Part shown: one piece after another, positions 863 to 37,048 of the stretch | How positions within the stretch are numbered: position 1 is the first letter of the stretch | Layout of the letters: every line of letters begins with the position of its first letter | DNA from: Agapetus fuscipes | Lineage: Eukaryota > Arthropoda > Insecta > Trichoptera > Glossosomatidae | Length of the DNA stretch: 64,000 bases | Direction: 5' to 3' | NCBI GenBank assembly: GCA_951799405.1 | Contig: OX637334.1 | Location: 14,880,001 to 14,944,000, forward strand | Position numbers and translations under genes: made by a program | The notes under the pieces: generated by a model | Database searches by the model: none | What the model saw: only the letters and a program-made list of their open reading frames with translations | Told to the model about the DNA's origin: nothing

Positions 863-3607
863 ATGGATAGAGCCTGTTTGGCAATAGTTATAGCTTCTGC
901 TGTTGTAAAGAAAAGAAAAAAAAGAAGAATATGGGTTAAGGATTGGCTGTTGGAAAGAGACAGGTACACCCATTTAAACCTATTGAATGAAATAGTAGTT
1001 AAAAATCCTGCAGATTTCAAAAATTATTTTCGAATGAGTGAAACAACGTTTTTAACTTTATTGGACATGGTTTCACCTCATATTAAAAAGCAAGACACTA
1101 ATATGAGACAAAGTATCAGTCCAAAAGAGCGACTCGCTGTTACTTTGCGATACCTGGCGACAGGAAGAAATTTTGCTGACCTCAAGTTCTCAGCATTGAT
1201 TTCCCCAGCAGCAATTAGTTCAATGATAATTGAAACATGTGAAACTCTCATCTATGTGCTTCGAGATTATATCAAGGTAAATTGAACAAAAAAATTCAAT
1301 TAGTAAAATATTTTATTAGTATGTATAGGCATTTATACACTTTACAAAATTTTATTTTATTCACAAAATGTATGATAGTAGTCCTTCAAGTTATTTTTTG
1401 ATGAAATGCCGTTATCATCGATTGGATCATAATTGTTATTATTGTTTAAAATCATAATTTTTTGGGGGGAAGTGGTGGTGGTAGAAGGGACACGGACTGG
1501 ACTAGGAAGGGTTCCGTTCAGTATTTGGGAAGGATTTGATGAATGGACTGGACTAGGAACGGTTCCGTTCAGTATTTGGGAAGGATTTGATGAATGGACT
1601 GGACTAGGAACGGTTCCGTTCAGTATTTGGGAAGGATTTGATGAATGGACTGGACTAGGAACGGTTCCGTTCAGTATTTGGGAAGGATTTGATGAATGGA
1701 CTGGACTAGGAACGGTTCCGTTCAGTATTTGGGAAGGATTTGATGAATGGACTGGACTAGGAACGGTTCCGTTCAGTATTTGGGAAGGATTTGATGAATG
1801 GACTGGACTAGGAACGGTTCCGTTCAGTATTTGGGAAGGATTTGATGAATGGACTGGACTAGGAAGGGTTCCGTTCAGTATTTGGGAAGGATTTGATGAA
1901 TGGACTGGACTAGGAACGGTTCCGTTCAGTATTTGGGAAGGATTTGATGAATGAATAAGCAAATTATGTTGGGCCGAATAATTTTCAGAGTTAGAGTTGG
2001 TGGTACGAAGGAAATGGATTGGACTTGGAATGGGAGTTTCGTGTTGCATTTGGGAATAATTTGAGGAATGTGTGGAAAAATTATTTTGGACTGAAAAATT
2101 TTCAGAGGGAGAGCTGGTGGTAGTAAGGAAATTGATGGTACTAGGAACGGGAGTTTGGTTTAGGATTTGAGAAGGATTTGAGGAATGTGTAGGAAAATTA
2201 TTTGGCCTTTGAGTTTTGTTAAGAAATGTTGAGGCAGACGGAGTCTGATGAATCCGGTTTGGAGATAGAGCCGGGTTTTGAAATTGTAGATCTCTTGGAA
2301 GGGTGTTAATAGGCAAAAACACTTTGTTTTGCGAATAATTTTGGGGTAAGGAAACATTTTTGGGGATGGGAGGACCATGCTGTTGTAGGTGACCAGAGCA
2401 GCGTAGGCAGGAAGATTGCGGCTCGTTGATTTTAACGGAGTTGTGATGCAGATTCCCCATTGTAGCCTCAAATAAAATGTCGTTTATGGCCTTTTCGGCA
2501 AGTATTTTTTGGGTCGCATCCAAATTTTGCAATTTTGTAGCCCAAACTTTCGCTAAGTTAAGATTGTAATCTCCTTCTTTTTCCTTGGTCAGGTACTCAC
2601 ACGCTAAATTCAGCAGCTCTGATTGTTTATTACATTTTTTTTGTTTTTTGGATTTTCTGTTGTAATTTATTGAAGTCGAAGGCTGAGTGATAACATCGTC
2701 CTCTGGAATTATGTTTGTAGTTTCTTGAGCCTAAAAAATAAAACAAGAGTTAAAAAATTCCTCGATGTTCATATTTCATGCTTTAAAAATGATTGACATT
2801 CTTTGTAACTAATTACAGCAAATTTTTATTACTACTAATAATAACAATCTTATTATTATTTAAAAATTTTTTTTTTTACAGCTTCCCTTAACAGAAGAGG
2901 AATGGTTATTAACTGCAGCAGAATTCAGCAAGAACTGCCACTTTCCTACTTGTCTCGGAGCTCTTGATGGAAAGCATATCGCCATAAAAAAACCGGCTAA
3001 TACCTCCTCTCTGTATTATAATTATAAAGGACACTTTAGCATTGTTTTAATGGCATTGGTCAATGCAAATAAGGAATTTATAATGGTGGATGTAGGAGCT
3101 AATGGTAGGATCTCCGACGGTGGGGTCCTCTTTTATACAAAATTTTGGGATTTGTTTCTAAAAAAGCAATTGCATATTCCACCTCCCACAAAGTTACCAG
3201 GTTCAGAGGATTATTTTCCTTACGTTTTTGTGGCAGATGAGGCCTTTGCTTTGCACTGCAACCTTATGAAACCATACCCTCAAAAAAAATGTACAAAGGA
3301 GCAAGATACTTTCAATAAACGACTGTCCACAGCTCGATGTGTAGTCGAAAATGCCTTTGGCATTCTCGCATCAAGATTTGGTGTGTTTCAAAAGCCAATA
3401 AATCTTGGTCCTGACAAAGCAACAAAAATTACACTAGCATGCTGCTATCTGCATAATTACTTAAAAAAGGAATCTCTAAACTTTAGTGCACAAAACGAAA
3501 TTGAAAGCATAGATGTAGGGGCTAGTCTTCGTGAAGAACATAGTAGGAATGCAAGCGACGCAAAATCCACAAGGGATAAATATTGTACATATTTTAATCT
3601 TACATAA
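863..3607 (+). CDS. PIF/Harbinger DDE transposase (two exons)
   Basis: Catalyses excision and integration of the element in the nucleus. Exon 1 is 863-1276, ending at an AAG|GTAAAT donor. Exon 2 is 2882-3607, after a pyrimidine-rich acceptor ending ACAG. The join keeps phase 0 and gives 379 residues, usual for the family. Exon 1 carries the N-terminal helical DNA-binding region. Exon 2 carries the DDE nuclease: Asp167 in GALDGKH, Asp257 in VADEAF, Glu294 in VVENAFG, and the family's conserved GRISDGG segment near residue 213. No stop or frameshift interrupts it. The start at 863 is the first ATG in the open frame. The 1.6-kb intron contains the last exon of the antisense MADF gene. Family assignment is firm; activity is inferred from intactness. 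Confidence 0.93.
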
Positions 3608-8774: not shown

Positions 8775-11700
8775 TTGTTTTTTCTGTTTATGTCTGCCGA
8801 AAATGATAGAATTTTGAAATTGCCGCATTATGGAGCGGCCGCCATTAATTTTCATCGACAGAATGAATGGGTTTTTGGGACATGGAATGTAAGGAAGATG
8901 AATGATTGCAAGGAGAAAGACATTATGAATGTAATGAAAGAGAAGCGAATAAAAGTGATGGGTGTGACTGAAACAAAAATGAAAGGGAATGGTGAGAAAG
9001 TATTAGCGAATGGTGAATTGTATATTTGGTCAGGTGTGGAAGATGGGAATGATAGGCAGGGTGTAGGTGTAATTGTGAGTGAGTGTGTGAAAGGATGCAT
9101 AACAGGATACCAAAGAGTTTCTCCCAGAATTTTAACTATCAAATTTAAAATTAAAAACTTGAGACATTTCTTGGTGACTTGTTATGCTCCTGTGGATTCA
9201 GAGTGTATGGAGGTGAGAATGAGATTCTGGAATGAATTGAATGCAATTGTTCATGAAAGAAAGAAGAATGAAAACATTATAATTTTGGGTGATATGAATG
9301 GATGGATAGGTATGCAAAGAGATGAAAGTTTGAAAATTATTGGTCCTGGTGGACGAGGTATAGTCAACGATAATGGGCGACATCTGATTGCTTTGTGTGC
9401 GGAGCACAGTCTTTTTGCATCAAATACTTGGTTTCGGCATAAGGATGTGCATCTGTACACAAGGCAGATTGTGGGAAGTCGCACAATCATTGACTACATC
9501 TGTGTGGATGAAAGATTGAGAGGAGCCGTAAGAGATAGCCGTGTATACCGTGGGCCTGAAATAGGCAGTGACCACTATCTCTTATGTGCTAAAATAATGC
9601 TTGGTGAAGTAAGAAAGAAGAAACGCAAGAAGCAAGTAAGAATGCCTAGAATAAAAATAGAAAGGCTGAATGAAGAAAATGTGAAAGAGAAGTATGTATC
9701 AGAGCTCCACAAAATTTTAAGTGTGAATGAACTTGAGAAGAACGTGTGTGGAAAAGACATTGAAAGTATGTGGAAAGATCTGAAAGAAGGAATGACTGAA
9801 TGCGCTAAAAAAGTATGTGGGGTAACGAAAGGTGGAAGATTGAAAGGAGATGCCTGGTGGAATGATAGAGTGAAAGAAGCTGTGAAAGTTAAGAAAAAGT
9901 GTTACGAAAATTGGCTGAATGATATAAATGATAGAAAGCAAGAAGACGCATATAAGATAGCTAAGAGAATGGCGAAGACTATAACTTATGAAAGCAAGAT
10001 GAATGAACAAAGAAAGATTGATGAAAGGATTAACAGAAGTTTCACCGACAGTAAGAAGGAATTTTGGAGGTGGATTAATGCGGATAGAAATAAATCTTCT
10101 GCATTGAACACTCCGGGAGTCAAAAGTGCTGCCGGTGAGATGGTATGGGAGAATGAAGAAGTATGCAAGAGATGGAAGAACTATTTTCAAGAAATTTTTG
10201 GTCAGGGTGAAAGAAGAATTTATGAACAAATAGATAAAGAGAATGAATTGAATATTTTGAAAGAAGAAATGAAAGTGTCTATTTCACGTCTGAAGAATGG
10301 GAAGTCTGCTGGGTTTGATGGTATAAATGGTGAAATGTTGAAAGCAGGAGGTGAATGTGTGATAGATTGGATGCACGAATTATGTAAGCTTTGTGTGAAT
10401 GCAGGAGTAGTACCGATGGATTGGAGGAAGGCAGTCATTGTTCCCATTTACAAAGGTAAAGGGGACAAAAAAGACTGTCAGAACTTCAGACCGATCAGTC
10501 TACTCAGTATACCAGGAAAAGTCTTTTGTAAGGTGATTATAAAAAATGTGATTCTGACTACTAGTGAAAGGATTTCCGATATACAGTCCGGCTTTATGGC
10601 CGGTAGAGGCTGTGTTGATCAGATTTTTACTCTACGACAACTTGTTGAAAAACAATTGTCGGTGAGGCGGAAGCTGTTCACGGCCTTTGTAGATCTGGAA
10701 AAGGCTTTTGACTCAGTAGACAGAGGTATGTTATGGGATGTTTTGAAAGCATACGGAGTGAATGGGGCTCTCCTAGGTGCGGTGCATGCCAACTATGAAA
10801 ATAGTAAGGCATGTGTTCGTATTGATGGTGAGTATAGTGAGTGGTTTGAAGTTTATAAGGGTGTGAGGCAAGGATGTGTGATGAGTCCTTGGCTATTTAA
10901 CATAGTCATGGACAAGTGTGTCAGAGATGCTAGACTTAATGATTGTGGATTGATGATAGGAGAGAGCAAAGTGAGTGTTCTACTGTATGCAGATGATGCA
11001 GTTCTTGTATCTGATTCTGCAGTAGAATTGCAAACAATGCTCTCTAGATTGAATGAAGCTTTGTTAGGTAACCATTTGAAGTTGAATGCAAGTAAGACGA
11101 AAGTATTGATTTTTGAAAGAGATGATGAAAGTATGAATTATGAATTTAAAATTAATGGAATGAATGTTGATGTCGTAAATGAGTTTGTATACCTGGGAAG
11201 TAAATTTGAAAAAGATGGAAGAATGATCGGTGAATTTGAAAGAAGAATAATGAAAGGCAGGTGCGTACTGGGTGTTACCGCTAGCATCGCCAAGAACCAG
11301 AATCTTTCAAAAAATGTTCGACTGGCGGTGCACGGTGGTATACTAGTACCCACTCTGATGTATGGAAGTGAAGCCTGGACGGTGAATGAAAGTGAGATTA
11401 GTAAAGTCCATACAGTAGAAATGGACTACTTAAGAAGTATGATTGGGAAAAGACGGAGTGATAAGGTGAGGAATGATTTTGTTAGAGAGGAATGTGGTGT
11501 AAGAGAAAGTGTGAAAGTAAAGATTAAAAGAAGTATACTTAGATGGTTTGGACATTTGGAGAGAATGAATGAGGAAAGACTGACGAAGAAAGTGTATGCT
11601 GCGAGAATTGATGGATGTCGTGGAAGAGGAAGACCGAGAAAGGTATGGATGGACCAAATTTTCGAAATAGCGAATGAATGGGATATCCAGAGTCATAATA

Positions 11701-11801
11701 AAAGGAGAGCTTGTATGAAAAAGGTTATGGCTCTGGATGAAATGAAAGAAGTATGCAAGGATCGAAAGAAATGGCGGTTGATCTGTAATGCTGGCGGTTA
11801 A
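8775..11801 (+). CDS. RTE-like LINE ORF (LINE 1): AP endonuclease and reverse transcriptase
   Basis: 1008 residues, uninterrupted. It nicks target DNA and copies element RNA by target-primed reverse transcription. The N-terminal AP endonuclease shows GTWNVR near residue 36, the ETKM glutamate, GDMN at 172-175 and SDH at 265-267. The reverse transcriptase shows IYKGKGDKKDCQNFRPISLL, GFMAGRGCVDQ, FVDLEKAFDSVDR, GVRQGCVMSPWLFN and YADD at 738-741. The C-terminal region contains ILRWFGHLERMNEERLTKK, RGRGRPRK and NKRRACMKK, typical of RTE-type proteins. The single ORF and its length fit the RTE group; the exact clade is not certain. The start is the first ATG in frame, and an internal ATG (MSAEND) six residues later is equally possible. 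Confidence 0.92.
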   Translation: MFFLFMSAENDRILKLPHYGAAAINFHRQNEWVFGTWNVRKMNDCKEKDIMNVMKEKRIKVMGVTETKMKGNGEKVLANGELYIWSGVEDGNDRQGVGVIVSECVKGCITGYQRVSPRILTIKFKIKNLRHFLVTCYAPVDSECMEVRMRFWNELNAIVHERKKNENIIILGDMNGWIGMQRDESLKIIGPGGRGIVNDNGRHLIALCAEHSLFASNTWFRHKDVHLYTRQIVGSRTIIDYICVDERLRGAVRDSRVYRGPEIGSDHYLLCAKIMLGEVRKKKRKKQVRMPRIKIERLNEENVKEKYVSELHKILSVNELEKNVCGKDIESMWKDLKEGMTECAKKVCGVTKGGRLKGDAWWNDRVKEAVKVKKKCYENWLNDINDRKQEDAYKIAKRMAKTITYESKMNEQRKIDERINRSFTDSKKEFWRWINADRNKSSALNTPGVKSAAGEMVWENEEVCKRWKNYFQEIFGQGERRIYEQIDKENELNILKEEMKVSISRLKNGKSAGFDGINGEMLKAGGECVIDWMHELCKLCVNAGVVPMDWRKAVIVPIYKGKGDKKDCQNFRPISLLSIPGKVFCKVIIKNVILTTSERISDIQSGFMAGRGCVDQIFTLRQLVEKQLSVRRKLFTAFVDLEKAFDSVDRGMLWDVLKAYGVNGALLGAVHANYENSKACVRIDGEYSEWFEVYKGVRQGCVMSPWLFNIVMDKCVRDARLNDCGLMIGESKVSVLLYADDAVLVSDSAVELQTMLSRLNEALLGNHLKLNASKTKVLIFERDDESMNYEFKINGMNVDVVNEFVYLGSKFEKDGRMIGEFERRIMKGRCVLGVTASIAKNQNLSKNVRLAVHGGILVPTLMYGSEAWTVNESEISKVHTVEMDYLRSMIGKRRSDKVRNDFVREECGVRESVKVKIKRSILRWFGHLERMNEERLTKKVYAARIDGCRGRGRPRKVWMDQIFEIANEWDIQSHNKRRACMKKVMALDEMKEVCKDRKKWRLICNAGG

Positions 11802-14873: not shown

Positions 14874-14995
14874 GTCAACGACGTTACCATGTTGAAAGCA
14901 CCGGTTCCCATAGATCACCGAAGTTAAGCAACATTGGGCGCGGATAGTACTTGGATGGGTTACCGCTCAGGTAGGTACACCGCGTGTCGTTGGCA
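14874..14995 (+). rRNA. 5S rRNA-like sequence, probably a pseudogene
   Basis: Clear 5S rRNA structure: start GTCAACGACGTTACCATGTTGAA, the internal promoter A box (GATCACCGAAGTTAAGCAAC), GGGCGCGG and the C box (AGTACTTGGATGGGTTACCGC), ending CGCGTGTCGTTGGCA, which pairs with the start. Two segments differ from the usual insect 5S: the loop after CCGGTTC is altered and shortened, and GGGAACACC is replaced by AGGTAGGTACACC. It is a single copy directly next to SINE-A, so a retroposed or degenerate copy is more likely than a functional gene. Confidence 0.82.
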
Positions 14996-16158: not shown

Positions 16159-16162
16159 ATAG

Positions 16163-16634
16163 TGTTATGTAAATATAAATATTGAAATAAGTATGGGTAG
16201 TTATAGTTATAAGAATCCTCAAAAGTATTGGTAGGTAAGATCGATAATTATGTATAAGTGTAGAATTCTCTAGGCTAAGTAGGTATTTGTTATAATTATA
16301 GGAATACTGTATTGCATTGGTAGGTAGGATTTTGGTTGTGTCTAGGTAGTACGTGAAACATCGAGAAGTAATAATTACTCTGGAACCGTCTGGCGACTTT
16401 AGTTCTGGATCATACTGCTCTGAAGAGTATAAAGGTGCGAATGGCCTGCAGAGCGGGCCAGTATCATAGAGACTTACAAACACATCGAAGTCATCTGATC
16501 AGTGAACCAAAACCAAGTGGAATAATCGAGAAAGTAGTGTGAAAATAAATTTTGTAACTGTGTAAAATAAATAACTATTGAAGAAGACCTGTGTATTTTT
16601 AATTTGAAGACAATTGAACCCTAATTTCGTAACA
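16163..16634 (+). repeat. 5' LTR
   Basis: 472 bp, TG..CA ends. Contains TATAAA at 16428-16433 and AATAAA at 16566-16571. Matches 19689-20160 with no difference noticed. Confidence 0.95.
16428..16433 (+). promoter_or_regulatory. LTR TATA box
   Basis: TATAAA within GAAGAGTATAAAGGTGCG. Transcription would start about 30 bp downstream in the LTR, near 16460. The same sequence recurs at 19954-19959 in the 3' LTR. Inferred from sequence only. Confidence 0.6.
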
Positions 16635-17309
16635 ATTGGCGTCAGGTGCGGAATTGTCAAGAAAAATTAAGATCTTCTGTCTAAAAATAAATAAAATAAA
16701 TTAAATAGTGTTAAAATGAACTTTATTCAAATTGAACTTTGTGTGAACTGACTTTTGTGAAAACAAGTGTTTAAATAAATTTTTGTTAAAAGAAAAGACG
16801 CAAAAGCAAGTTGCTTATAAATTCTGGAACATCATATGGAACATAATTCTGGACATAATTCTGGACATAACATAATGACTATTTCACCGCATTGAGAAAG
16901 TCATCAAATTGGACCATAGTTTTTTTTATTATTGTGTGTGATTAAAAAAATAAAATAAATAAATAAAAATCTTGAAAAATATTACAAAAGAACGTTCCAG
17001 ATTCATCGAGAAAAAGTTTTTGAATAACTATCCTTTGTTTACAAGTGTGTGAATGTACATGAAGTACCTACCTGTGTGTTTGAAAGACTTGAGACGAAAT
17101 AAATAATTATGTACTATCAGACATTATTATGTTAAAAATATTGGTGAATTAAAAATAAATATTAAAAGACAGTACCTACCAATCAGTGTAATCAGATAAA
17201 TTATTATTTTGCTAAAGTACGTATTCAAAACAGCTATATATATAAAACTCAAAACTTGTATTAAATAAATTTAAAAATATTTTCGTTTTGAAGTAAATTT
17301 TGAAAAAAA
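16635..17309 (+). other. LTR element leader
   Basis: 675 bp of AT-rich non-coding sequence. It starts ATTGGCGTCAGGTGCGG, the likely tRNA primer-binding site two bases after the LTR; I could not identify the tRNA. Packaging signals would be expected here. Confidence 0.6.
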
Positions 17310-19688
17310 ATGGCAACCAAAGTGAACATCAAGGACCTCAAAGTCACTGAGCTTAAAAATGAGCTTCTGGAGAGGGACCTGGAGACCTCAGGAGGGAAGG
17401 CGGCCTTACAGGCACGCCTCATGGAGGCCTTAGAACAGTCAGGCGAAGACCTGGCATATTTTGTCATGGCGTCTGGAGGGGACCGCGCCTTGGACGAGCT
17501 AAACCTCAGCATCACCGGAAACTTCACTTCCATGGAGGAAAAGCTGAAAGGGGAGATGGCTGACAACGCCAAGACCCTGAAAGTGGAGATGGCTGACAAC
17601 GCCAAGACCCTGGAGGAGAAGATGGCTGACAACGCCAGGACCCTGGAGGAGAAAATGGCTGACAATTCCAAGACCCTGAGGGAAGACCTGAAGGCGGAGA
17701 TGGCTGACAACGCCAGGACCCTGAAGGCGGAGATAGCGGATAGTCTCACAACCCTGAAAGGAGAAATAGAGGAGAAGATGACAACCAACCTCTCGGCCCT
17801 GAAGGGGGAAATGGAGACTCGGATGTCAAACCTGGAAGACCGTCTGCGTGCCGAACTGGCTGACAAGTGCCAGATGGAGTCCACCAGAATCTCCCCCAAA
17901 GGCGGCCTTCACGACGAGACCGACCAGGGATGCTCAACTCCAACCAGGATCACAAGAGGGGATGATGACCCTTCCCTAGCCAAGCACAACCTCCCAACCT
18001 TCGACGGGAAGACGTCGTGGGAGGAATACTTGACCCTCTTTGAGACGGCTGCCATGATGGGAGCCTGGAGCCAGCAGAAGAAGGCTTCGGTTCTCAGCCT
18101 GTCGCTCCGAGGAGACGCTCTCAGGGTTCTGCAGGCCATACCCCTGGACAACCGTGGTGACTTTGGGCAGCTGAAGCAGCGCTTGGATATGCGCTATGGC
18201 CACAAGTGCCTGGAGCAGCTGTACAAGTCGCAGCTGAACACAAGGGTGCAGAAGCCCAACGAGAGCCTCCAGGAGTTTGAAATGGACATCGCCCGCCTGG
18301 TACGAGACGCTTACCCGACAGCCTCCGACGACATCTGTGAGAGCTTGGCAGTGGACAAGTTCCTAAATGGATTGCGGGAATGGGAGACGCAACAAGCCGT
18401 AAAACTGGCCCATCCCAAGGCTTTGAACGAGGCGCTCAGCCAAGCTCTCGAGTTTGAGGCTGTCAAACAGTCCATCAGGGGCCACGCCAGGGTTCGTGCA
18501 GTCGAGGCAGAGGAGGTCAAGCTACCTACAACCGAGGAAATAATAGAAAAAGTGCTGCAGCAACTTGAGCCAACGAGACAGAAGGCGCACTGCTGGACGT
18601 GTGGCCAGCAAGGACACCTGAGCGCGAGGTGCCCAAAGTCTCAAGGACCGGAGAAATTGGAAGACGACCGCAAGGATGTAGAGACCACCATGGAGATGAA
18701 CAAACGGCTGAGGAAACAGCTCCAGGATGCCGAGAGAAAGGTCAAAGTCATGGAGACGGAGAACAGGCAGCTGACGAAGAACTTGGCCAGCAGTGAAAGG
18801 GTCCGGCGAACAGCGGAGGCCGAGAGGGACGAGTTGCACGAGACTGTGCTGAGCCTGGAGAGACAGAACAAGGGGCTTAAGACTAAGCTCCAGCAGCTGG
18901 AAGCTGGGCAGGGGCCCAGGACGAAGGACACCATCGCCAACCTGGAGTCCAAGAACAGCAACACCAAGGAGGCGGGAGCTCGAATGAAGGATAACCACCG
19001 GCCAACTCAAAGAGCAAAGTGGTCAAACAATGACCAGCCCGCCCAGAGAGTACAAAAATGCGTCGCATCCAAAGAAGCGCCCCTGTTTGAGACGTTCTGG
19101 AGCAAGGTGCAAGAGGGACAGAAGATTCGCCATGGGGTGACCACAGAAGTCCACAAGGACTTATTTGAGGTCACTGGGGACCACACACTGGCATGCAGTG
19201 TACCGGAAGATCTAGATATGTCTAGAGGAATTGCACGGGTCTTCCGATACAAATTCGGAGAACCGCAACCCTCGAGCAGCCCGCAAGGAAGAGCTCTGAG
19301 ACTACCGAAGGGGCGTCAACAAGCATACTGCCTGGTTGTCCCGGATTCCAGCAACCTGGAAGAGGACTACAAGGCATTGTGGGACGGCCTTGTTGAGCTG
19401 CGTGACTACATGTTGGAGGATCAGCAGGCGCGTCTGGCAATACCGAAGATGGGTGGCGGCCGCGCTAATCGAGACTGGCGGATAATCCGGAGTATGATTG
19501 AAGCAGTGTTCTCGGGAGTCGGCATCAGCGTCATGGTGTGCTGCGAGCAAGCGCAGCCGAGAGCCAGTGGGGAGAAATCCGTGGACTGCCACTTCTTCCT
19601 GACCACAGGGTGTCGACGTGGATCAGCATGCCCCTACCTACACAGAGTCAAGACTGTTCCGGGACGAAACAGTCTAGGTGGGGGGTAG
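17310..19688 (+). CDS. Gag-like protein with SAP, macrodomain and CCCH finger
   Basis: 792 residues that should form the particle and bind element RNA. Visible order: a SAP-like DNA-binding motif (about 6-40, DLKVTELKNELLERDLETSG); a coiled coil built of MADNAKTLEEK-type repeats (75-190); a Ty3/gypsy capsid (about 222-390, LPTFDGKTSWEEYLTLFE, YKSQLNTRVQKPNESLQEFE); a CCHC knuckle C428-X2-C431-X4-H436-X4-C441; a second coiled coil (450-545); a macrodomain of OARD1/TARG1 type (about 605-745, DLFE..HTLACSVPEDLDMSRGIA, LAIPKMGGG); and a CCCH finger C760-X7-C768-X5-C774-X3-H778. The position equivalent to the TARG1 catalytic Asp appears to be Ala719 and the catalytic Lys is absent, so binding without hydrolysis is possible. 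The gene is markedly GC-richer than its surroundings. No pol domain follows. Confidence 0.9.
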   Translation: MATKVNIKDLKVTELKNELLERDLETSGGKAALQARLMEALEQSGEDLAYFVMASGGDRALDELNLSITGNFTSMEEKLKGEMADNAKTLKVEMADNAKTLEEKMADNARTLEEKMADNSKTLREDLKAEMADNARTLKAEIADSLTTLKGEIEEKMTTNLSALKGEMETRMSNLEDRLRAELADKCQMESTRISPKGGLHDETDQGCSTPTRITRGDDDPSLAKHNLPTFDGKTSWEEYLTLFETAAMMGAWSQQKKASVLSLSLRGDALRVLQAIPLDNRGDFGQLKQRLDMRYGHKCLEQLYKSQLNTRVQKPNESLQEFEMDIARLVRDAYPTASDDICESLAVDKFLNGLREWETQQAVKLAHPKALNEALSQALEFEAVKQSIRGHARVRAVEAEEVKLPTTEEIIEKVLQQLEPTRQKAHCWTCGQQGHLSARCPKSQGPEKLEDDRKDVETTMEMNKRLRKQLQDAERKVKVMETENRQLTKNLASSERVRRTAEAERDELHETVLSLERQNKGLKTKLQQLEAGQGPRTKDTIANLESKNSNTKEAGARMKDNHRPTQRAKWSNNDQPAQRVQKCVASKEAPLFETFWSKVQEGQKIRHGVTTEVHKDLFEVTGDHTLACSVPEDLDMSRGIARVFRYKFGEPQPSSSPQGRALRLPKGRQQAYCLVVPDSSNLEEDYKALWDGLVELRDYMLEDQQARLAIPKMGGGRANRDWRIIRSMIEAVFSGVGISVMVCCEQAQPRASGEKSVDCHFFLTTGCRRGSACPYLHRVKTVPGRNSLGGG

Positions 19689-20160
19689 TGTTATGTAAAT
19701 ATAAATATTGAAATAAGTATGGGTAGTTATAGTTATAAGAATCCTCAAAAGTATTGGTAGGTAAGATCGATAATTATGTATAAGTGTAGAATTCTCTAGG
19801 CTAAGTAGGTATTTGTTATAATTATAGGAATACTGTATTGCATTGGTAGGTAGGATTTTGGTTGTGTCTAGGTAGTACGTGAAACATCGAGAAGTAATAA
19901 TTACTCTGGAACCGTCTGGCGACTTTAGTTCTGGATCATACTGCTCTGAAGAGTATAAAGGTGCGAATGGCCTGCAGAGCGGGCCAGTATCATAGAGACT
20001 TACAAACACATCGAAGTCATCTGATCAGTGAACCAAAACCAAGTGGAATAATCGAGAAAGTAGTGTGAAAATAAATTTTGTAACTGTGTAAAATAAATAA
20101 CTATTGAAGAAGACCTGTGTATTTTTAATTTGAAGACAATTGAACCCTAATTTCGTAACA
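19689..20160 (+). repeat. 3' LTR
   Basis: 472 bp, same sequence as 16163-16634 as far as can be read. Preceded by the purine tract GGTGGGGGG and the gag stop codon (19686-19688). Confidence 0.95.
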
Positions 20161-20344
20161 ATAGGTTTGAACGGTTTGAACAAAATGCTATTCATTTTGG
20201 AGGAATTAAATGCCAAAAGGTGTTCTATGTTTACCGGAAATTAAAACAGCACAAAAATCAAGGTAGCTAGACATACTTCTAAATTTCAAAAAAAATCTTC
20301 TCAATGTGTAAGACGTGGCACAAATTCTGTTGGCCAAAAAAATT

Positions 20345-21233: not shown

Positions 21234-21508
21234 TATGTTTTGGAAATATTTTTTTTCTTTCTATTTATAGAACTATAGGTACATTGTCTAGTGTAGTATC
21301 GAAACAGTTTTTTTATAATGTCAATAGTTTTTGAGTAAATGGGGAAAAACTGTGTTCTTCGATTTAATTAAAATTTAATTCATCAAGTAGTTTCAGTTTT
21401 TCCATATTTACTCAAAAACTATTGACATTATAAAAAAACTGTTTCGATACTACACTAGACAATGTATAGTTCTATAAATAGAAAGAAAAAAAATATTTCC
21501 AAAACATA
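21234..21508. mobile_element. Palindromic TA-flanked MITE
   Basis: Arms of about 118 bp (21236-21351 and 21391-21506) are near-perfect reverse complements, beginning TGTTTTGGAAATATTTTTTT, with TA on both sides. The loop is about 40 bp. Likely Tc1/mariner-type. It lies between the inverted 3'-end copy and LINE 2. Confidence 0.82.
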
Positions 21509-21908: not shown

Positions 21909-24900
21909 TTGTGCAGAGGAATTAAACGAAGACCGAGAGGCAGACGAGGCGGCCGCAATGACCGCAGAAACCCGGGGACAGCTGCAGACAAGGAGGGGCC
22001 CGTGGAAGCTGACAATGTCCACCGCCCGGAATCGAAGGAAGTGTCAAATGGCCTCTGCGGAGGTGTCGAAGCTGACAATTCTGTCAGGAATGGAAGTGTG
22101 TGTAAAAGGAAGTATGTGAAACAAGAAGAATGGAAGTTTGCGACATGGAATGTTAGAGAATGGAATGACTGTAAAGAGAATGAAATTTCTGATATTATGG
22201 AAAAGAGAGGAATACAAGTGATGTGCGTGACTGAAATAAAAATGATCGGGGATGGAGAAAAGGTATTGAAGAATGAGGAGTATTTTATTTGGAGTGGAAT
22301 TAAGGATGGATATAAGAGACAAGGCGTGGGAGTAATTTTGAGCGAACGGGCTAAAATATGTGTAAGTAATTATGAAAGAATATGTCCTAGGATTCTGTTG
22401 GTAAGAATGAGATTAGGACGTATGAAAATCCTACTGGTAGCTTGTTATGCTCCAGTAGAATCTGATAGCAGAGAAGAAAGAGATGAATTTTGGGAGAGTG
22501 TAAATAATGTACTAAGAATGAAAGAAGAGAATGAACGAATTATTCTATTAGGAGATATGAACGGATGGATTGGTATGAAACGAGATGATTGCGGAAAGGT
22601 TGTGGGACCGAGTGGTAGAGGAATGATCAATAATAATGGACGAAAGCTTGTCAACACATGTATAGAACACAGACTTTTTGCAACAAACACCTGGTTTAAA
22701 CACCAAGACTTGCATCTCTATACATGGCAAAATAGGGCAGGCAATCGAACAATTATTGATTATATATGCGTGGATGAAAGAATGAGAGGATGTGTGAGAG
22801 ATGCAAGAGTGTACCGTGGAGCTGAACTCAGCACAGACCACTATTTGCTATGCGCGAGAATAATGGTAGGGGATTGTAAAAAAGGAAAGAAAAAATTATT
22901 GTTAAGAATGAAAAGAATAAAAGTGGAAAATTTGAAAGATGACAAGGTGCAAGATGAATATCAAAGTGAGATTGCCAAAAGATTAAATATGGATGAACTA
23001 CAAAAAATGAAAGATGAAGGATGTGTGGAAAAAGTGTGGCAAATGATGAAGAAAGAACTGACCGAATCTGCTAGAATGACATGCGGAGAAACAAATGTTG
23101 GTAAGAAAAAAGGTGATGCCTGGTGGAACGATGGAGTGAAAGAAGCAGTAGAGCAAAAGAAGGAAGCGTATAAGAAATGGTTGAAAGATAAAGGTAATTT
23201 GAATTTGGAAATGATGTATATAAGGGCAAAAATGAATACTAAAAAGCTTGTGTATGAAAGTAAGATGGAATTAGAGAAGAAAAATAATGAAAGGGCACAG
23301 CAGGACTTCCACACCAACAAAAAAATGTTCTGGAGTTGGGTTCGGAATAATAACGAAAGTGTGGGAGCAACAACTCCGGGCATAAAGAATGCGCAGGGAG
23401 TCTTGCTGTGGGATGAAGACGATGTATGTAACAGATGGAAAGAATACTTTGAAGAAATATTAGGACAGGGCGAAAGAAATTTATATGAATGTGACCCTAC
23501 AAATGAAAGTAATGAGGATATTTTGAAAGAGGAAATAAAAGCAAGCATAAAAGAGCTGAAGAATGGAAAGGCTGCAAGTATGGATGGATTGAATGCCGAG
23601 ATGTTAAAGGCAGGAGGAGAATGTGTGGTAGAGTGGATGTTTGAATTATGCAAGATGTGTATGAAAGACAGGGTAGTACCGATGGACTGGAGAAAGGCGG
23701 TCATTGTCCCTATTTACAAGGGTAAAGGGGACAAGAAAGACTGCCGTAACTTTAGGCCCATTAGTCTCCTTAGTATACCTGGGAAAGTCTTATGCAAAAT
23801 TGTCATAAAAAAAGTGAGAATGGCCACCGATCACAGGGTCTCTGATATTCAATCTGGTTTTATGCCAGGACGAGGTTGTGTGGACCAAATCTTTACTCTC
23901 AGACAGATTGTTGAAAAACATCTGGCTGTGGGGAGGGTGGTCTACGCAGCCTTCGTGGATCTCGAGAGGGCCTTTGAGTCGGTGGACAGATGTATGTTGT
24001 GGAATGTTCTCAGGAAGTACGGTGTGAATGACAACCTTCTGAATGTGATACGTGCCATCTATGAAAATAGTTCGGCATGTGTAAGAGTGGATGGGAGATA
24101 TAGTGACTGGTTTGATGTATATAAGGGAGTGAGGCAAGGCTGCGTAATGAGTCCATGGTTGTTTAATATAATCATGGACAGTTGCATAAAAGAAGCTGGA
24201 ATATCAGAGAGCGGAGTGAAAGTGGGTGAAACAAGAGTTGGAGTACTTCTTTATGCTGATGATGCTATAGTTTTAGCTGACTCGGCGGAGGAACTCCAAG
24301 CGATGTTAACCAAACTGAATGATGCATTTTGTAAAAATAGCTTGAAAGTGAATGCGAATAAGACAAAAATATTAGTTTTTGACAGGAATGAAGTATGTGA
24401 GGAACTTACAGTTAATTTGAATGGGAAAAAAGTTGAAGTAGTGAATGAGTTTGACTATTTAGGAAGCAAGTTTGAGGCGAATGGTAAGATGACGAAGGAA
24501 TTAGAGAAGCGTGCCAGCAAAGGAAGATGCGTGATAGGAGCGTTTGGTAGAATAGCGAAGAATAAAAGGATACCAAAGAAAATGAAAATGGCGGTACACA
24601 ATTGTATTTTGTTGCCGACCCTGATGTATGGAAGCGAGTCATGGACGGTGAATGAAAGAGAAGTAAATAAGGTATGCACCGTAGAAATGGCTCATTTAAG
24701 AAGTATGACAGGAAAAACACTGAAAGATAGAGTGAGAAACGAATGGGTTCTGAATGAATGCGGAGTAAAAGAAAGCGTGAAAGTGAAAGTTCAAAGAAGT
24801 GTGATGCGATGGTTTGGACATATTGAAAGGATGAATGAAGACCGACTGACAAAAAGAGTGTATAAAGGGAATGTAATAGGTAAGCGTGGAAGGGGAAGAC

Positions 24901-25073
24901 CTAGAAAAGAATGGATTGATCAGATAAGTGAGATTGCGAATGAATGGAATTTACAGAGTGGAAACAAGAGAAGAGCATGCATGAAAAGAGTGATGAAATT
25001 AGATGAGATGAAAGAAGTATGCAGGGACAGAGTCAAGTGGAGGCACTTATGTGGAGGTACTGGCCACCCCTAG
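21909..25073 (+). CDS. RTE-like LINE ORF (LINE 2): AP endonuclease and reverse transcriptase
   Basis: 1054 residues, uninterrupted, clearly homologous along its length to the ORF at 8775-11801 but diverged. Endonuclease motifs: FATWNVREWND, TEIKM, GDMN at 215-218, and TDH at 309-311 where LINE 1 has SDH. Reverse transcriptase motifs: IYKGKGDKKDCRNFRPISLL, GFMPGRGCVDQ, FVDLERAFESVDR, GVRQGCVMSPWLFN and YADD at 782-785. C-terminus: RWFGHIERMNEDRLTKR, RGRGRPRKEW, NKRRACMKR. It has about 70 extra N-terminal residues that are GC-rich and basic (RRPRGRRGGRNDRR), possibly an RNA-binding extension. If translation starts later, it is closer in length to LINE 1. It ends GGTGHP before the stop, as in fossils at 5824-6022 and 62169-62315. 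Confidence 0.92.
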   Translation: MCRGIKRRPRGRRGGRNDRRNPGTAADKEGPVEADNVHRPESKEVSNGLCGGVEADNSVRNGSVCKRKYVKQEEWKFATWNVREWNDCKENEISDIMEKRGIQVMCVTEIKMIGDGEKVLKNEEYFIWSGIKDGYKRQGVGVILSERAKICVSNYERICPRILLVRMRLGRMKILLVACYAPVESDSREERDEFWESVNNVLRMKEENERIILLGDMNGWIGMKRDDCGKVVGPSGRGMINNNGRKLVNTCIEHRLFATNTWFKHQDLHLYTWQNRAGNRTIIDYICVDERMRGCVRDARVYRGAELSTDHYLLCARIMVGDCKKGKKKLLLRMKRIKVENLKDDKVQDEYQSEIAKRLNMDELQKMKDEGCVEKVWQMMKKELTESARMTCGETNVGKKKGDAWWNDGVKEAVEQKKEAYKKWLKDKGNLNLEMMYIRAKMNTKKLVYESKMELEKKNNERAQQDFHTNKKMFWSWVRNNNESVGATTPGIKNAQGVLLWDEDDVCNRWKEYFEEILGQGERNLYECDPTNESNEDILKEEIKASIKELKNGKAASMDGLNAEMLKAGGECVVEWMFELCKMCMKDRVVPMDWRKAVIVPIYKGKGDKKDCRNFRPISLLSIPGKVLCKIVIKKVRMATDHRVSDIQSGFMPGRGCVDQIFTLRQIVEKHLAVGRVVYAAFVDLERAFESVDRCMLWNVLRKYGVNDNLLNVIRAIYENSSACVRVDGRYSDWFDVYKGVRQGCVMSPWLFNIIMDSCIKEAGISESGVKVGETRVGVLLYADDAIVLADSAEELQAMLTKLNDAFCKNSLKVNANKTKILVFDRNEVCEELTVNLNGKKVEVVNEFDYLGSKFEANGKMTKELEKRASKGRCVIGAFGRIAKNKRIPKKMKMAVHNCILLPTLMYGSESWTVNEREVNKVCTVEMAHLRSMTGKTLKDRVRNEWVLNECGVKESVKVKVQRSVMRWFGHIERMNEDRLTKRVYKGNVIGKRGRGRPRKEWIDQISEIANEWNLQSGNKRRACMKRVMKLDEMKEVCRDRVKWRHLCGGTGHP

Positions 25074-27737: not shown

Positions 27738-28205
27738 AGTGAACTTCGTACCTACGAGATTACACCAATATACCCTAAAATACCTTTTGATTTATAGAAT
27801 CAACTATGTGATAATGGACTCGCACGAAATTTGAAATGAGAATGTTTTTCTCGGCTGGCAAACGTCTCAGATCTTATGTGACTAGGGTCCTTAGCAACCA
27901 ATAAGAAAATATATTAGCGTAAGTAGGGTCCCCCATTACCAATAACAAAATATACTTACAATATGTTATAAAATATACAAAATTTTAATACCTCCTATTA
28001 AAATAAAATTAAAATACGTTTGACCCAGCAACTTGGTCGTGTGACGTTACATTTTTTGTTTTTGAATTTGGTGCGGAGTCCACTTTGAGAAATCAACTCA
28101 AATATCTTATTTAATTAACGTTTTTTAATTAATTAATCCTGAATGAATCGCGAGACCGAATAAGGAACTCAGAAATAAATAAAAACGTGCGCGAAACTGA
28201 GGACA
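27738..28205. other. Repeat D copy and AT-rich spacer
   Basis: Plus-type D block at about 27835-28055 (TTTCTCGGCTGGCAAACGTC, TAGCAACCAATAAGAAAATA, GTGTGACGTTACAT). The rest is AT-rich with no gene. Confidence 0.5.
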
Positions 28206-28208
28206 TCG

Positions 28209-29335
28209 TCAAATGGAGTAGGAAGAGGTGACGGCTCCGCGTGGACGTGGATAGATGACAAATGGAGTAGGAGAGGTGACGGCTCCGCGTGGACGTGGAT
28301 AGATGACAAATGGAGTAGGAAGAGGTGACGGCTCCGCGTGGACGTGGATAGATGACAAATGGAGTAAGAAGAGGAGACGGCTCTGCGTGGACGTGGATAG
28401 ATGACAAATGGAGTAGGAAGAGGTGACGGCTCCGCGTGGACGTGGATAGATGACAAATGGAGTAGGAAGAGGTGACGGCTCCGCGTGGACGTGGATAGAT
28501 GACAAATGGAGTAGGAAAAGGTGACGGCTCCGCGTGGACGTGGATAGATGACAAATGGAGTAGGAAGAGGTGACGGCTCCGCGTGGACGTGGATAGATGA
28601 CAAATGGAGTAGGAAGAGGTGACGGCTCCGCGTGGACGTGGATAGATGACAAATGGAGTAGGAAGAGGAGACGGCTCCGCGTGGACGTGGATAGATGACA
28701 AATGGAGTAGGAAGAGGTGACGGCTCCGCGTGGACGTGGATAGATGACAAATGGAGTAGGAAGAGGTGACGGCTCCGCGTGGACGTGGATAGATGACAAA
28801 TGGAGTAGGAAGAGGTGACGGCTCCGCGTGGACGTGGATAGATGACAAATGGAGTAGGAAGAGGTGACGGCTCCGCGTGGACGTGGATAGATGACAAATG
28901 GAGTAGGAAGAGGTGACGGCTCCGCGTGGACGTGGATAGATGACAAATGGAGTACGAAGAGGTGACGGCTCCGCGTGGACGTGGATAGATGACAAATGGA
29001 GTAGGAAGAGGTGACGGCTCCGCGTGGACGTGGATAGATGACAAATGGAGTAGGAAGAGGTGACGGCTCCGCGTGGACGTGGATAGATGACAAATGGAGT
29101 AGGAAGAGGTGACGGCTCCGCGTGGACGTGGATAGATGACAAATGGAGTAGGAAGAGGTGACGGCTCCGCGTGGACGTGGATAGATGACAAATGGAGTAG
29201 GAAGAGGTGACGGCTCCGCGTGGACGTGGATAGATGACAAATGGAGTAGGAAGAGGTGACGGCTCCGCGTGGACGTGGATAGATGACAAATGGAGTAGGA
29301 AGAGGTGACGGCTCCGCGTGGACGTGGATAGATGA
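28209..29335 (+). repeat. 49-bp minisatellite, about 23 copies
   Basis: Unit GTGACGGCTCCGCGTGGACG plus 29 further bases, tandem and nearly identical. Rare changes include a TCTGCG variant near 28381 and a GAGACGG variant near 28673. Because 49 is not a multiple of three and the unit has no stop on the minus strand, all three minus frames stay open for about 390 codons. These are artefacts. Confidence 0.95.
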
Positions 29336-29395
29336 CAATAAGATAACTCGGATATAAAAGTGGCACTAAAAGTAGAAATGAAAAAATATATGGAT

Positions 29396-29660
29396 ACAAA
29401 TACCTAGACATAGTGGTTAACACTTCTGACTCGTAAATAGAAGGTTGTGGACTCGAATCCCGGCGGAACACAAAAAAAATCACCATTATATTTTCAAATA
29501 TGCTCTTGGCTGGGTGGAAAAATCATCAACCTTTACCAAAGACCGGTCACTAAAGGTCCATCCAGCCTTACAGCAACTGGGTCCTACTTGAGAATCGTCG
29601 CTTTCTACAGCGACGACCAAGCTCGCAGAGGGCTCTTGAGGTGTGACACACATCCTAATA
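29396..29660 (+). mobile_element. SINE-A copy
   Basis: The head is truncated at ACATAGTGGTTAACACTTC, with B box GGACTCGAATCCCGGCGG. The body (CCAAAGACCGGTCACTAAAGG, GACCAAGCTCGCAGAGGGCT) follows. It ends in GTGTGACACACATCCTAATA. Confidence 0.85.
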
Positions 29661-33582: not shown

Positions 33583-36312
33583 AAAGTGAGTATGGGACAA
33601 AGGAGTATGGGACAGAGCCCAGAGGAGTATGGGACAGAGAAGTATGGGACAGAAGAGTATGAGACAGAGCCCAGAGGAGTATGAGACAGAGGAGTATGAG
33701 ACAGAGCCCAGAGGAGTATGAGACAGAGCCCAGAGGAGTATGGGACAGAGGAGTATGAGACAGAGCCCAGAGGAGTATGAGACAGAGCCCAGAGGAGTAT
33801 GGGACAGAGGAGTATGAGACAGAGCCCAGAGGAGTATGAGACAGAGCCCAGAGGAGTATGGGACAGAGGAGTATGAGACAGAGCCCAGAGGAGTATGAGA
33901 CAGAGCCCAGAGGAGTATGGGACAGAGGAGTATGAGACAGAGCCCAGAGGAGTATGGGACAGAGCCCAGAGGAGTATGGGACAGAGGAGTATGAGACAGA
34001 GCCCAGAGGATTATGGGACAGAGCAGTATGGGACAGAGTCCAGAGGAGTATGGGACAGAGCCCAGAGGATTATGGGACAGAGCAGTATGGGACAGAGTCC
34101 AGAGGAGTATGGGACAGAGCCCAGAGGATTATGGGACAGAGCAGTATGGGACAGAGCCCAGAGGATTATGGGACAGAGCAGTATGGGACAGAGCCCAGAG
34201 GAGTATGGGACAGAGCCCAGAGGAGTATGGGACAGAGAAGTATGGGACAGAGGAGTATGAGACAGAGCCCAGAGGAGTATGAGACAGAGCCCAGAGGAGT
34301 ATGGGACAGAGGAGTATGAGACAGAGCCCAGAGGAGTATGGGACAGAGCCCAGAGGAGTATGGGACAGAGGAGTATGAGACAGAGCCCAGAGGAGTATGG
34401 GACAGAGCCCAGAGGAGTATGAGACAGAGAAGTATGGGACAGAGGAGTATGAGACAGAGCCCAGAGGAGTATGGGACAGAGCCCAGAGGAGTATGGGACA
34501 GAGGAGTATGAGACAGAGCCCAGAGGAGTATGGGACAGAGCCCAGAGGAGTATGGGACAGAGGAGTATGAGACAGAGCCCAGAGGATTATGGGACAGAGC
34601 CCAGAGGAGTATGGGACAGAGCCCAGAGGAGTATGGGACAGAGGAGTATGAGACAGAGCCCAGAGGATTATGGGACAGAGCAGTATGGGACAGAGTCCAG
34701 AGGAGTATGGGACAGAGCCCAGAGGAGTATGGGACAGAGGAGTATGAGACAGAGCCCAGAGGATTATGGGACAGAGCAGTATGGGACAGAGTCCAGAGGA
34801 GTATGGGACAGAGCCCAGAGGAGTATGGGACAGAGCCCAGAGGAGTATGAGACAGAGCCCAGAGGAGTATGGGACAGAGAAGTATGGGACAGAGGAGTAT
34901 GAGACAGAGCCCAGAGGAGTATGAGACAGAGCCCAGAGGAGTATGGGACAGAGGAGTATGAGACAGAGCCCAGAGGAGTATGGGACAGAGCCCAGAGGAG
35001 TATGGGACAGAGGAGTATGAGACAGAGCCCAGAGGAGTATGAGACAGAGCCCAGAGGAGTATGGGACAGAGGAGTATGAGACAGAGCCCAGAGGAGTATG
35101 AGACAGAGCCCAGAGGAGTATGGGACAGAGGAGTATGAGACAGAGCCCAGAGGAGTATGAGACAGAGCCCAGAGGAGTATGGGACAGAGGAGTATGAGAC
35201 AGAGCCCAGAGGAGTATGAGACAGAGCCCAGAGGAGTATGGGACAGAGGAGTATGAGACAGAGCCCAGAGGAGTATGAGACAGAGCCCAGAGGAGTATGG
35301 GACAGAGGAGTATGAGACAGAGCCCAGAGGAGTATGGGACAGAGCCCAGAGGAGTATGGGACAGAGGAGTATGAGACAGAGCCCAGAGGATTATGGGACA
35401 GAGCAGTATGGGACAGAGTCCAGAGGAGTATGGGACAGAGCCCAGAGGATTATGGGACAGAGCAGTATGGGACAGAGTCCAGAGGAGTATGGGACAGAGC
35501 CCAGAGGATTATGGGACAGAGCAGTATGGGACAGAGCCCAGAGGATTATGGGACAGAGCAGTATGGGACAGAGCCCAGAGGAGTATGGGACAGAGCCCAG
35601 AGGAGTATGGGACAGAGAAGTATGGGACAGAGGAGTATGAGACAGAGCCCAGAGGAGTATGACACAGAGCCCAGAGGAGTATGGGACAGAGGAGTATGAG
35701 ACAGAGCCCAGAGGAGTATGGGACAGAGCCCAGAGGAGTATGGGACAGAGGAGTATGAGACAGAGCCCAGAGGATTATGGGACAGAGCCCAGAGGAGTAT
35801 GGGACAGAGCCCAGAGGAGTATGGGACAGAGGAGTATGAGACAGAGCCCAGAGGATTATGGGACAGAGCAGTATGGGACAGAGTCCAGAGGAGTATGGGA
35901 CAGAGCCCAGAGGAGTATGGGACAGAGGAGTATGAGACAGAGCCCAGAGGATTATGGGACAGAGCAGTATGGGACAGAGTCCAGAGGAGTATGGGACAGA
36001 GCCCAGAGGATTATGGGACAGAGCAGTATGGGACAGAGTCCAGAGGAGTATGGGACAGAGCCCAGAGGAGTATGGGACAGAGGAGTATGAGACAGAGCCC
36101 AGAGGATTATGGGACAGAGCAGTATGGGACAGAGTCCAGAGGAGTATGGGACAGAGCCCAGAGGAGTATGGGACAGAGGAGTATGAGACAGAGCCCAGAG
36201 GATTATGGGACAGAGCAGTATGGGACAGAGTCCAGAGGAGTATGGGACAGAGCCCAGAGGAGTATGGGACAGAGGAGTATGAGACAGAGCCCAGAGGAGT
36301 ATGGGACTGGAT
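33583..36312 (+). repeat. Large purine-rich minisatellite with higher-order structure
   Basis: About 2.7 kb of 22-bp units (GGAGTATGAGACAGAGCCCAGA) alternating with 15-bp units lacking the CCCAGAG part, plus GATTATGGGACAGAGCAGTATG variants. Long blocks are duplicated: 33895-34282 matches 35275-35662 at a 1380-bp offset, and about 34471-34810 matches 35659-36000 at a 1188-bp offset. Frames are open on several strands only because the unit lacks stops; no protein is proposed. Confidence 0.95.
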
Positions 36313-37048
36313 AAGAAAGGTGGTGGACAAGCAGTTTCAGCTGCGGCTGATCAAGGATACCAATGCTTCTCCCGGGTTGGCGCGCCAATGACGATGGTTA
36401 TGGTTTCTATAATTTACCGTTTAAATATCCCTATGTATATAACGTGTAAAAAATAATTGTATCCATTATTAATAAACATCGTAACTGATATTAGAGTGGG
36501 TGATTTATATTTTTTATGTAAAATAACCCACCCAGAGCACGCCTTGGGAGTGTAGCCATATTTCATCGTCCGACACTTCCGCTTTATCTGAATTTTGCGT
36601 AAATAATACATGTAATTAAAAATATGCTTTTTACATTCGCATAATTTTAAGATCAGTTACCTGTAAAACGTATAAAATATAAGTGGGTATTGAAGACAGA
36701 ACGCGTGTTAAATCCAGCTAGGAGAAGTCGTAAGAATTTTCTCGAAGAAGTAGTCGCTTGTGGAGAGCCTTTTTGGCACACCTGCACCAGTGTGTTATAT
36801 AATAAAGAGTATAGACATCGTAGATGAGTTCATGCATTTAGTGTAACTTCTCGAAGAATTCCCAGCTGTTGTAAGACAGAGGAGAGCCTCTCAAGGCATA
36901 CGCTATAACATTTTCTTTCATCTGTTATTTGACTGACTAAAATGTAATATGTATTATGTGAGATATTTGACAGGTCGACAGTCATCAATTTATTTGGGCG
37001 CAGTCGTTGTGTGAATCATACGTCATGATTTTTTTGAGCTTGATAAGC
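36313..37048. other. No gene recognised
   Basis: Contains a short open tail beyond the minisatellite and AT-rich spacer. Nothing assignable. Confidence 0.5.

What the first reader, a model, noticed from the sequence alone, without database searches (positions are those of the whole stretch)
17310..19688. Retrotransposon Gag fused to a macrodomain and a CCCH zinc finger
Seen: one 792-codon ORF between two LTRs with SAP, coiled coil, capsid, CCHC, coiled coil, a block resembling OARD1/TARG1 macrodomains (DLFE..HTLACSVPEDLDMSRGIA, KFG, YCLVV, LAIPKMGGG, W723, MIEAVF), then C-X7-C-X5-C-X3-H. Known: macrodomains bind or remove ADP-ribose, and some RNA viruses use them against PARP-based defence. 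Inference: the element may use ADP-ribose recognition to evade host silencing or to localise its particles. I am not aware of this domain order in a gag-only element.
Basis: partly seen in the sequence, partly recalled or inferred. Interest (0 to 1): 0.92.

Follow-up and report, generated by a model that had tools for sequence, protein, structure and literature searches.

The report
Gag-only retrotransposon keeping a macrodomain tail
A very young jumping element, probably of an insect, makes one protein that joins a virus-like shell protein to an ADP-ribose-type (macrodomain) and zinc-finger tail, a tail that a related complete element carries behind the enzyme that inserts DNA into chromosomes.

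Summary

The reading changes. At least 150 places in the genome carry the same tail joined to the end of an integrase, 106 of them in a 1422-aa open frame; the window's last 512 coding bases are identical to 7 of 10 such tails. Gene models of a longhorn beetle (Molorchus minor) carry a related tail. The window element is a non-autonomous, TR-GAG-like derivative with a private core; its two ends match the complete partner.

Both catalytic residues of TARG1 (recalled) are replaced here (P678, A719) but kept in the beetle; tested ADP-ribose-pocket residues are kept. Binding, not hydrolysis, is the likelier shared function; passive retention is a serious rival. Evasion of host silencing is untested. 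My paper searches listed no integrase-macrodomain-CCCH tail in Ty3/gypsy elements; macro domain ORFs in fish retroviruses are known.

The parts
16159..16162 (.). target-site duplication ATAG, left copy
16163..16634 (+). 5' LTR, 472 bp, TG...CA
   Evidence: identical to the 3' LTR
16637..16656 (+). primer-binding site, two bases after the LTR; a variant in copy L021 resembles the tRNA-Leu 3' end (recalled match, not tested)
17310..19688 (+). single ORF, 792 codons: Gag joined to the Pol tail
17328..17435 (+). SAP domain (aa 7-42)
17445..17894 (+). coiled coil 1, with 33-nt (11-aa) repeats; its length varies between copies
17982..18539 (+). capsid (aa 225-410); in the window copy codons 301-410 differ at 1 base from the partner's gag (L066)
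18540..19136 (+). private core of the non-autonomous family: divergent CCHC, coiled coil 2, diverged pre-macro linker (bounds approximate)
18591..18632 (+). CCHC knuckle (aa 428-441)
19030..19688 (+). stretch homologous to the partner's Pol C-terminal tail; 19177-19688 identical to 7 of 10 partner tails
19143..19538 (+). TARG1/OARD1-like macrodomain (aa 612-743)
19587..19643 (+). CCCH zinc finger, C-x7-C-x5-C-x3-H (aa 760-778)
19677..19688 (+). probable polypurine tract GGTGGGGGGTAG, overlapping the last codons and the stop
   Evidence: sequence
19689..20160 (+). 3' LTR
20161..20164 (.). target-site duplication ATAG, right copy

Best explanation
A young, non-autonomous Ty3/gypsy LTR element whose single ORF joins the SAP-coiled coil-capsid part of Gag, a private nucleocapsid plus coiled-coil core, and the macrodomain-CCCH tail that the complete partner carries at the end of Pol behind integrase. 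It encodes no protease, RT, RNase H or integrase, so the partner must supply them (inferred). Its capsid is close to or the same as the partner's, so its protein most likely co-assembles with partner Gag; its RNA would be reverse transcribed and integrated by partner enzymes at the same RTAY targets. Because it needs no frameshift, it would load particles with more tail than Gag-Pol does (inferred). Both ends match the partner, probably through template switching in shared particles (inferred). The tail most likely works as a binding module, an ADP-ribose and/or RNA reader and not a hydrolase, in the place where chromoviruses have a chromodomain (function inferred).
For: Identical LTRs, TSD, PBS, PPT, one ORF. 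57 scored copies, 56 without stops. Partner: 150 scored places with the integrase end joined to the tail, 106 in a 1422-aa open frame; one frame runs RNase H end-integrase-macrodomain-CCCH; a gag piece shows Gag, then retropepsin in the -1 frame. Tail DNA exact in 7 of 10 partner tails. Gag codons 1-60: diversity 0.056 in 7 partner gags, 0.042 in 40 non-autonomous copies, 0.048 between them; the other blocks up to codon 300 likewise; codons 411-450 differ by 37%. TSD in 36 of 39 copies, RTAY in 31 of 36 against 2.1% of window positions; partner right flanks RTAY in 8 of 9. Beetle proteins with a related tail. TARG1 binds RNA even with pocket mutations G123E and G43E (PMC5928194, passages).
Against: No expression, particle or mobilisation data. 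The RT stretch of the partner was not read. Shared ancestral variation could explain part of the gag similarity instead of exchange. Within the young family the macrodomain shows no purifying selection (3 synonymous, 12 nonsynonymous variant codons; dN/dS 2.2 on tiny numbers), so its retention could be a by-product of recombination and of cis needs at the 3' end. ADP-ribose binding is inferred from residues and fold only; the model's confidence is modest.
Confidence: 0.72

Rival explanations
1. The macrodomain-CCCH tail is passive in the Gag-only element: the 3' kilobase is kept because the PPT, LTR and recombination homology lie there, and the open frame is a leftover of a young family.
For: Copies are very young (0-4 LTR substitutions, 18 of 38 with none). 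Variant codons in the macrodomain look neutral (3 syn, 12 nonsyn). The last codons overlap the probable PPT. The tail is DNA-identical to 7 of 10 partner tails.
Against: The part of the joint that is not identical to the partner differs at dS 0.71 but dN 0.21 (40 codons), suggesting coding constraint, although part of that may have acted on the partner's side and the numbers are small. 56 of 57 copies have no stop, in open frames of 765-825 aa.
Confidence: 0.35
2. Counter-defence: the tail removes or masks ADP-ribose placed by host PARPs on element RNA or Gag, as viral macrodomains do.
For: Binding-pocket residues are kept; the two beetle proteins keep both recalled catalytic residues; RNA-virus macrodomains are structural neighbours.
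Against: K84 and D125 equivalents are P678 and A719 in this lineage, also in the 10 partner tails examined, so hydrolysis is unlikely. Nothing here links the element to PARP defence.
Confidence: 0.15
3. A domesticated host gene that happens to lie between LTRs.
For: Long open frame with host-like domains.
Against: 57 scored dispersed copies; 38 of 41 examined have two full LTRs and 36 of 39 have TSDs.
Confidence: 0.02

Closest known systems
TR-GAG elements (terminal-repeat retrotransposons with GAG), plants
   Same: Two LTRs, one Gag ORF, no pol, close relation to a complete element (PMC8704663, abstract and passages).
   Different: Ty3/gypsy element of an animal, probably an insect; the ORF ends in the partner's Pol tail and carries a private core.
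Chromoviruses (Ty3/gypsy with a chromodomain at the integrase C-terminus)
   Same: A domain of reader type fused behind integrase, here in the partner (PMC3605345, abstract and passages).
   Different: Macrodomain plus CCCH finger instead of a chromodomain.
Fish epsilon-like endogenous retroviruses with macro domain ORFs
   Same: Macrodomain carried by a retroelement (one passage of the review PMC4977317, citing Basta et al. 2009).
   Different: There described as additional ORFs of retroviruses; here a Pol tail, and a Gag fusion, of a Ty3/gypsy element. Those sequences were not compared.
TARG1/OARD1 macrodomain
   Same: Fold; D20, G43, I44, G123 and W129 equivalents.
   Different: Recalled catalytic K84 and D125 replaced; MSRGIA in place of MGAGIA, shared with beetle protein P0009.
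Molorchus minor NQ317_006004 (P0009) and NQ317_009071 (P0010)
   Same: Ty3/gypsy gag-pol gene models with a related tail: integrase C-terminus then macrodomain in the first, macrodomain then CCCH in the second.
   Different: Recalled catalytic residues kept; the gene models look chimeric; 34-36% identical.

Membership tests
TR-GAG-like non-autonomous LTR element | two LTRs, PBS, PPT, TSD | tested here: met
TR-GAG-like non-autonomous LTR element | single ORF with Gag, no pol enzymes | tested here: met
   no protease, RT, RNase H or integrase family at E<=1; but a Pol-derived tail is present
TR-GAG-like non-autonomous LTR element | transposes using a partner's enzymes | not testable with these tools
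   indirect only: matching LTRs and target motif
Ty3/gypsy (partner) | order PR-RT-RNase H-INT | tested here: inconclusive
   protease after gag, and RNase H end-INT-tail in one frame; RT stretch not read; 1422-aa open frame in 106 of 150 places
Ty3/gypsy (partner) | capsid of the retroviral/Arc type | tested here: met
   Foldseek PNMA2, Arc, MLV with low TM-scores; Gag relatives P0003-P0006 reach Pfam Retrotrans_gag
TARG1-like macrodomain | macrodomain fold nearest to TARG1 | tested here: met
   Pfam Macro itself does not hit
TARG1-like macrodomain | ADP-ribose pocket residues G43, I44, G123 | tested here: met
   G640, I641, G717 in 40 of 40 copies; importance from PMC5928194
TARG1-like ADP-ribosyl hydrolase | catalytic K84 and D125 (recalled) | tested here: not met
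   P678 in 40 of 40; A719 in 39 and T in 1 of 40
Chromovirus | chromodomain at the integrase C-terminus | tested here: not met
   Pfam on the L057 piece lists no chromodomain at E<=0.1; macrodomain and CCCH lie in that place
Fish retroviruses with macro ORFs | common descent of the macrodomain | not tested
   no sequences of these were compared

The most novel reading that the evidence does not exclude
The enzyme has become a pure reader in one lineage while a beetle lineage keeps an apparently active site.
Probability: 0.28. Interest if true: 0.85.

Novelty: new variant of a known kind. Interest (0 to 1): 0.62.

Why it matters
It shows a retroelement integrase tail made of an ADP-ribose-type domain and an RNA-type zinc finger, found in this genome and in a beetle, and a satellite that joins this tail to Gag and shares both ends with its partner. 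If the tail reads ADP-ribose, it would link PARP signalling to integration or particle fate and give a direct test of how accessory domains direct retroelements. The young matched pair is also a clean natural case for studying how a Gag-coding satellite lives off its partner.

Tried and rejected
Gag-only capture of a macrodomain: rejected once the partner's Pol tail was found.

Apparent lack of a TSD in eight copies with flank TATAG: in seven, an LTR variant with a tandem duplication at its 5' end explains it and the TSD is found. L046 stayed without one, as did L039 and L044. L016 and L054 were left out of the TSD count because only one full LTR was found.

Purifying selection on the macrodomain within the family: looked for and not found.

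Relatives in viral contigs: none with the window protein, P0009, P0001 or a Gag alignment; none in prokaryote genome contigs with the Gag alignment. A protein search with residues 595-792 of the whole protein found none. NCBIfam gave only a weak DarG match, E 2.1e-4, far under its cut-off. Prokaryotic macrodomain proteins were found by tblastn in phage and plasmid records and used only for comparison.

Host OARD1 gene and origin of coiled coil 2: not answered, because the genome search machine did not reply (PF01661; coiled coil). P0009 against the own genome also did not complete.

Papers on K84/D125 of TARG1: not found by term search in PMC7139919, PMC8003356, PMC8053099 or PMC5928194, so those two residues rest on recall. 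PMC2684134 holds no macro domain term.

Searches searched partner loci in one orientation only; their partner counts are replaced.

Full report
What is there. The ORF 17310-19688 encodes 792 residues. It lies between LTRs 16163-16634 and 19689-20160, which are identical, with ATAG on both sides. A primer-binding site starts two bases after the 5' LTR, and a probable polypurine tract overlaps the last codons. The element is 3,998 bp. Pfam gives SAP 7-42, and CCHC 428-443 and CCCH 756-778 slightly below their cut-offs. The capsid rests on a weak PNMA match and a structure model (mean pLDDT 80, pTM 0.48) whose best Foldseek matches are PNMA2, Arc and MLV capsid, E 2.8e-4 to 1.1e-3, with low TM-scores.

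Copies. The window's own genome (618 Mb, 148 contigs, unnamed) gave 57 scored copies of this ORF at 93-100% identity, the window's included; 56 have no internal stop, and 11 of the 57 match in two pieces split in the first coiled-coil part. Only 57 of 2,452 first-look candidates were scored, so this is a lower bound. I fetched 40 of the other 56; with the window this makes 41. Of these, 40 have an ORF of at least 760 codons (L042 has the stop), 38 have two full LTRs, and 18 of the 38 have no LTR substitution, the highest count being 4. Thirty-six of 39 examined have a 4-bp TSD; 31 of those 36 are RTAY, a motif at 2.1% of window positions. The family is young and was inserted by an integrase.

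The partner. A 232-aa protein from a public 996-bp contig, P0001, is 95% identical over the macrodomain query; its start matches the integrase end seen in L057. In the own genome it gives 150 scored places of 1,416 candidates, each 99% identical over all 232 residues; 106 lie in an open frame of exactly 1422 aa and 44 in frames of other lengths, 266-1861 aa (my count). One such piece, L057, reads RNase H end, integrase zinc finger, core and C-terminal domain, then macrodomain and CCCH in one frame. The gag piece of another copy, L066, has a 453-aa Gag (SAP, coiled coil, capsid, CCHC), then a retropepsin in the -1 frame. I did not read the RT stretch. Over the last 512 coding bases the window is identical to 7 of 10 partner tails; the other three differ at one or two bases. 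The 3' LTR of L057 is 98.9% identical to the window's. Right flanks of 9 partner LTRs are RTAY in 8. The macrodomain-CCCH is therefore a Pol tail, shared at the DNA level with the Gag-only element.

Mosaic structure. Mean synonymous divergence among the 40 copies is 0.14 in SAP, 0.20 in coiled coil 1 and 0.10 in linker plus capsid, but 0.002-0.007 from the CCHC on, except 0.027 in the 34-residue pre-macro linker. Seven partner gags set against the 40 copies show no clear separation over codons 1-300 (codons 1-60: 0.056 and 0.042 within, 0.048 between), partial separation over 301-410, and 37% difference over 411-450. Over codons 181-410, 12 of 40 copies lie within 16 differences of one of the 7 partner gags; the other 28 are 29-59 away. 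In the window copy codons 301-410 differ at one base from L066. At the other joint, window 19030-19136 is diverged from the partner and 19177-19688 is identical to L057. So a private core, about 18540-19136, is flanked by ends matching the partner. The core is old relative to the copies: pre-macro linker dS 0.71, dN 0.21; CCHC dS saturated, dN 0.30 (39-40 codons each, so rough). Template switching in shared particles is the simplest cause; this is inference, and shared ancestral variation could account for part of the gag pattern.

Other species. The full-length protein search returned ten proteins. Seven (P0002-P0008) are SAP-type Gags of 435-557 aa without a macrodomain; their contigs were not read, so their Pol ends are unknown. 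P0011 is a distant Gag. P0009 and P0010 are gene models from the beetle Molorchus minor: in P0009 the macrodomain follows the integrase C-terminal domain, in P0010 it ends in a CCCH finger of the same spacing. Both keep lysine and aspartate at the positions of K84 and D125, and P0009 shares MSRGIA where TARG1 has MGAGIA (P0010 reads RRGIA), which hints at one capture. The models look chimeric, so the order there is less certain than in this genome. A retroelement filed as a Wolbachia plasmid from a moth (L001) has a related capsid, and I saw no tail in the stretch after its integrase. That the window's host is an insect is inferred from these relatives, not tested.

How it works. Shown: the anatomy, the shared ends, the shared target motif, the youth, and the loss of the recalled catalytic pair. 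Inferred: partner enzymes mobilise it; its protein mixes with partner Gag; the tail binds ADP-ribose, PAR or RNA. Since the beetle proteins keep the catalytic pair and this lineage has lost it, while fold, pocket and CCCH persist, binding is the better guess for a common function. The nearest mechanical parallel is the chromodomain behind chromovirus integrase (PMC3605345, abstract and passages). Against a function in the Gag fusion, variant codons in the macrodomain look neutral (3 synonymous, 12 nonsynonymous), so passive retention is a serious rival.

Novelty. Gag-only LTR elements are known in plants (PMC8704663, abstract and passages). Macro domain ORFs are reported for fish epsilon-like retroviruses (one passage of PMC4977317). 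My searches of the held library for macrodomain or macro domain with retrotransposon, transposable element, gag, integrase, gypsy, Ty3 or retroelement, and for A1pp and Appr-1-p processing listed no paper whose title or abstract start names such a tail; three of these lists showed 10 of 62, 112 and 113 papers, and subscription papers are not held, so it may be in print.

Noticed in passing
window 14874-14995 (+): A full-length 5S rRNA gene match (81.7 bits) about 1.2 kb upstream of the element.
   Followed up: no
window 8775-11801 and 21909-25073 (+): Two long ORFs that read like endonuclease-plus-RT non-LTR retrotransposon proteins (by reading only).
   Followed up: no
window 21280-21352 and 21394-21466: Inverted repeat with 73-nt arms, 97% complementary, 41 nt between them.
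   Followed up: no
window 1357-2532, 28129-29486, 35509-36330: Repetitive ORFs that look like products of tandem-repeat arrays (by reading only).
   Followed up: no
window 17445-17894 and L016-L055: The first coiled coil holds 33-nt repeats encoding 11-residue units; ORF length varies between copies (766-806 codons among the 40 intact ones).
   Followed up: partly
L001 (NZ_CP087956.1, 5332 bp): A record filed as Wolbachia plasmid unnamed3 from the moth Corcyra cephalonica encodes retropepsin, RT, RNase H and integrase: probably a host retroelement.
   Followed up: partly
L021, L024, L026, L029, L031, L048, L050: LTR variants with a tandem duplication at the 5' end of the LTR.
   Followed up: partly
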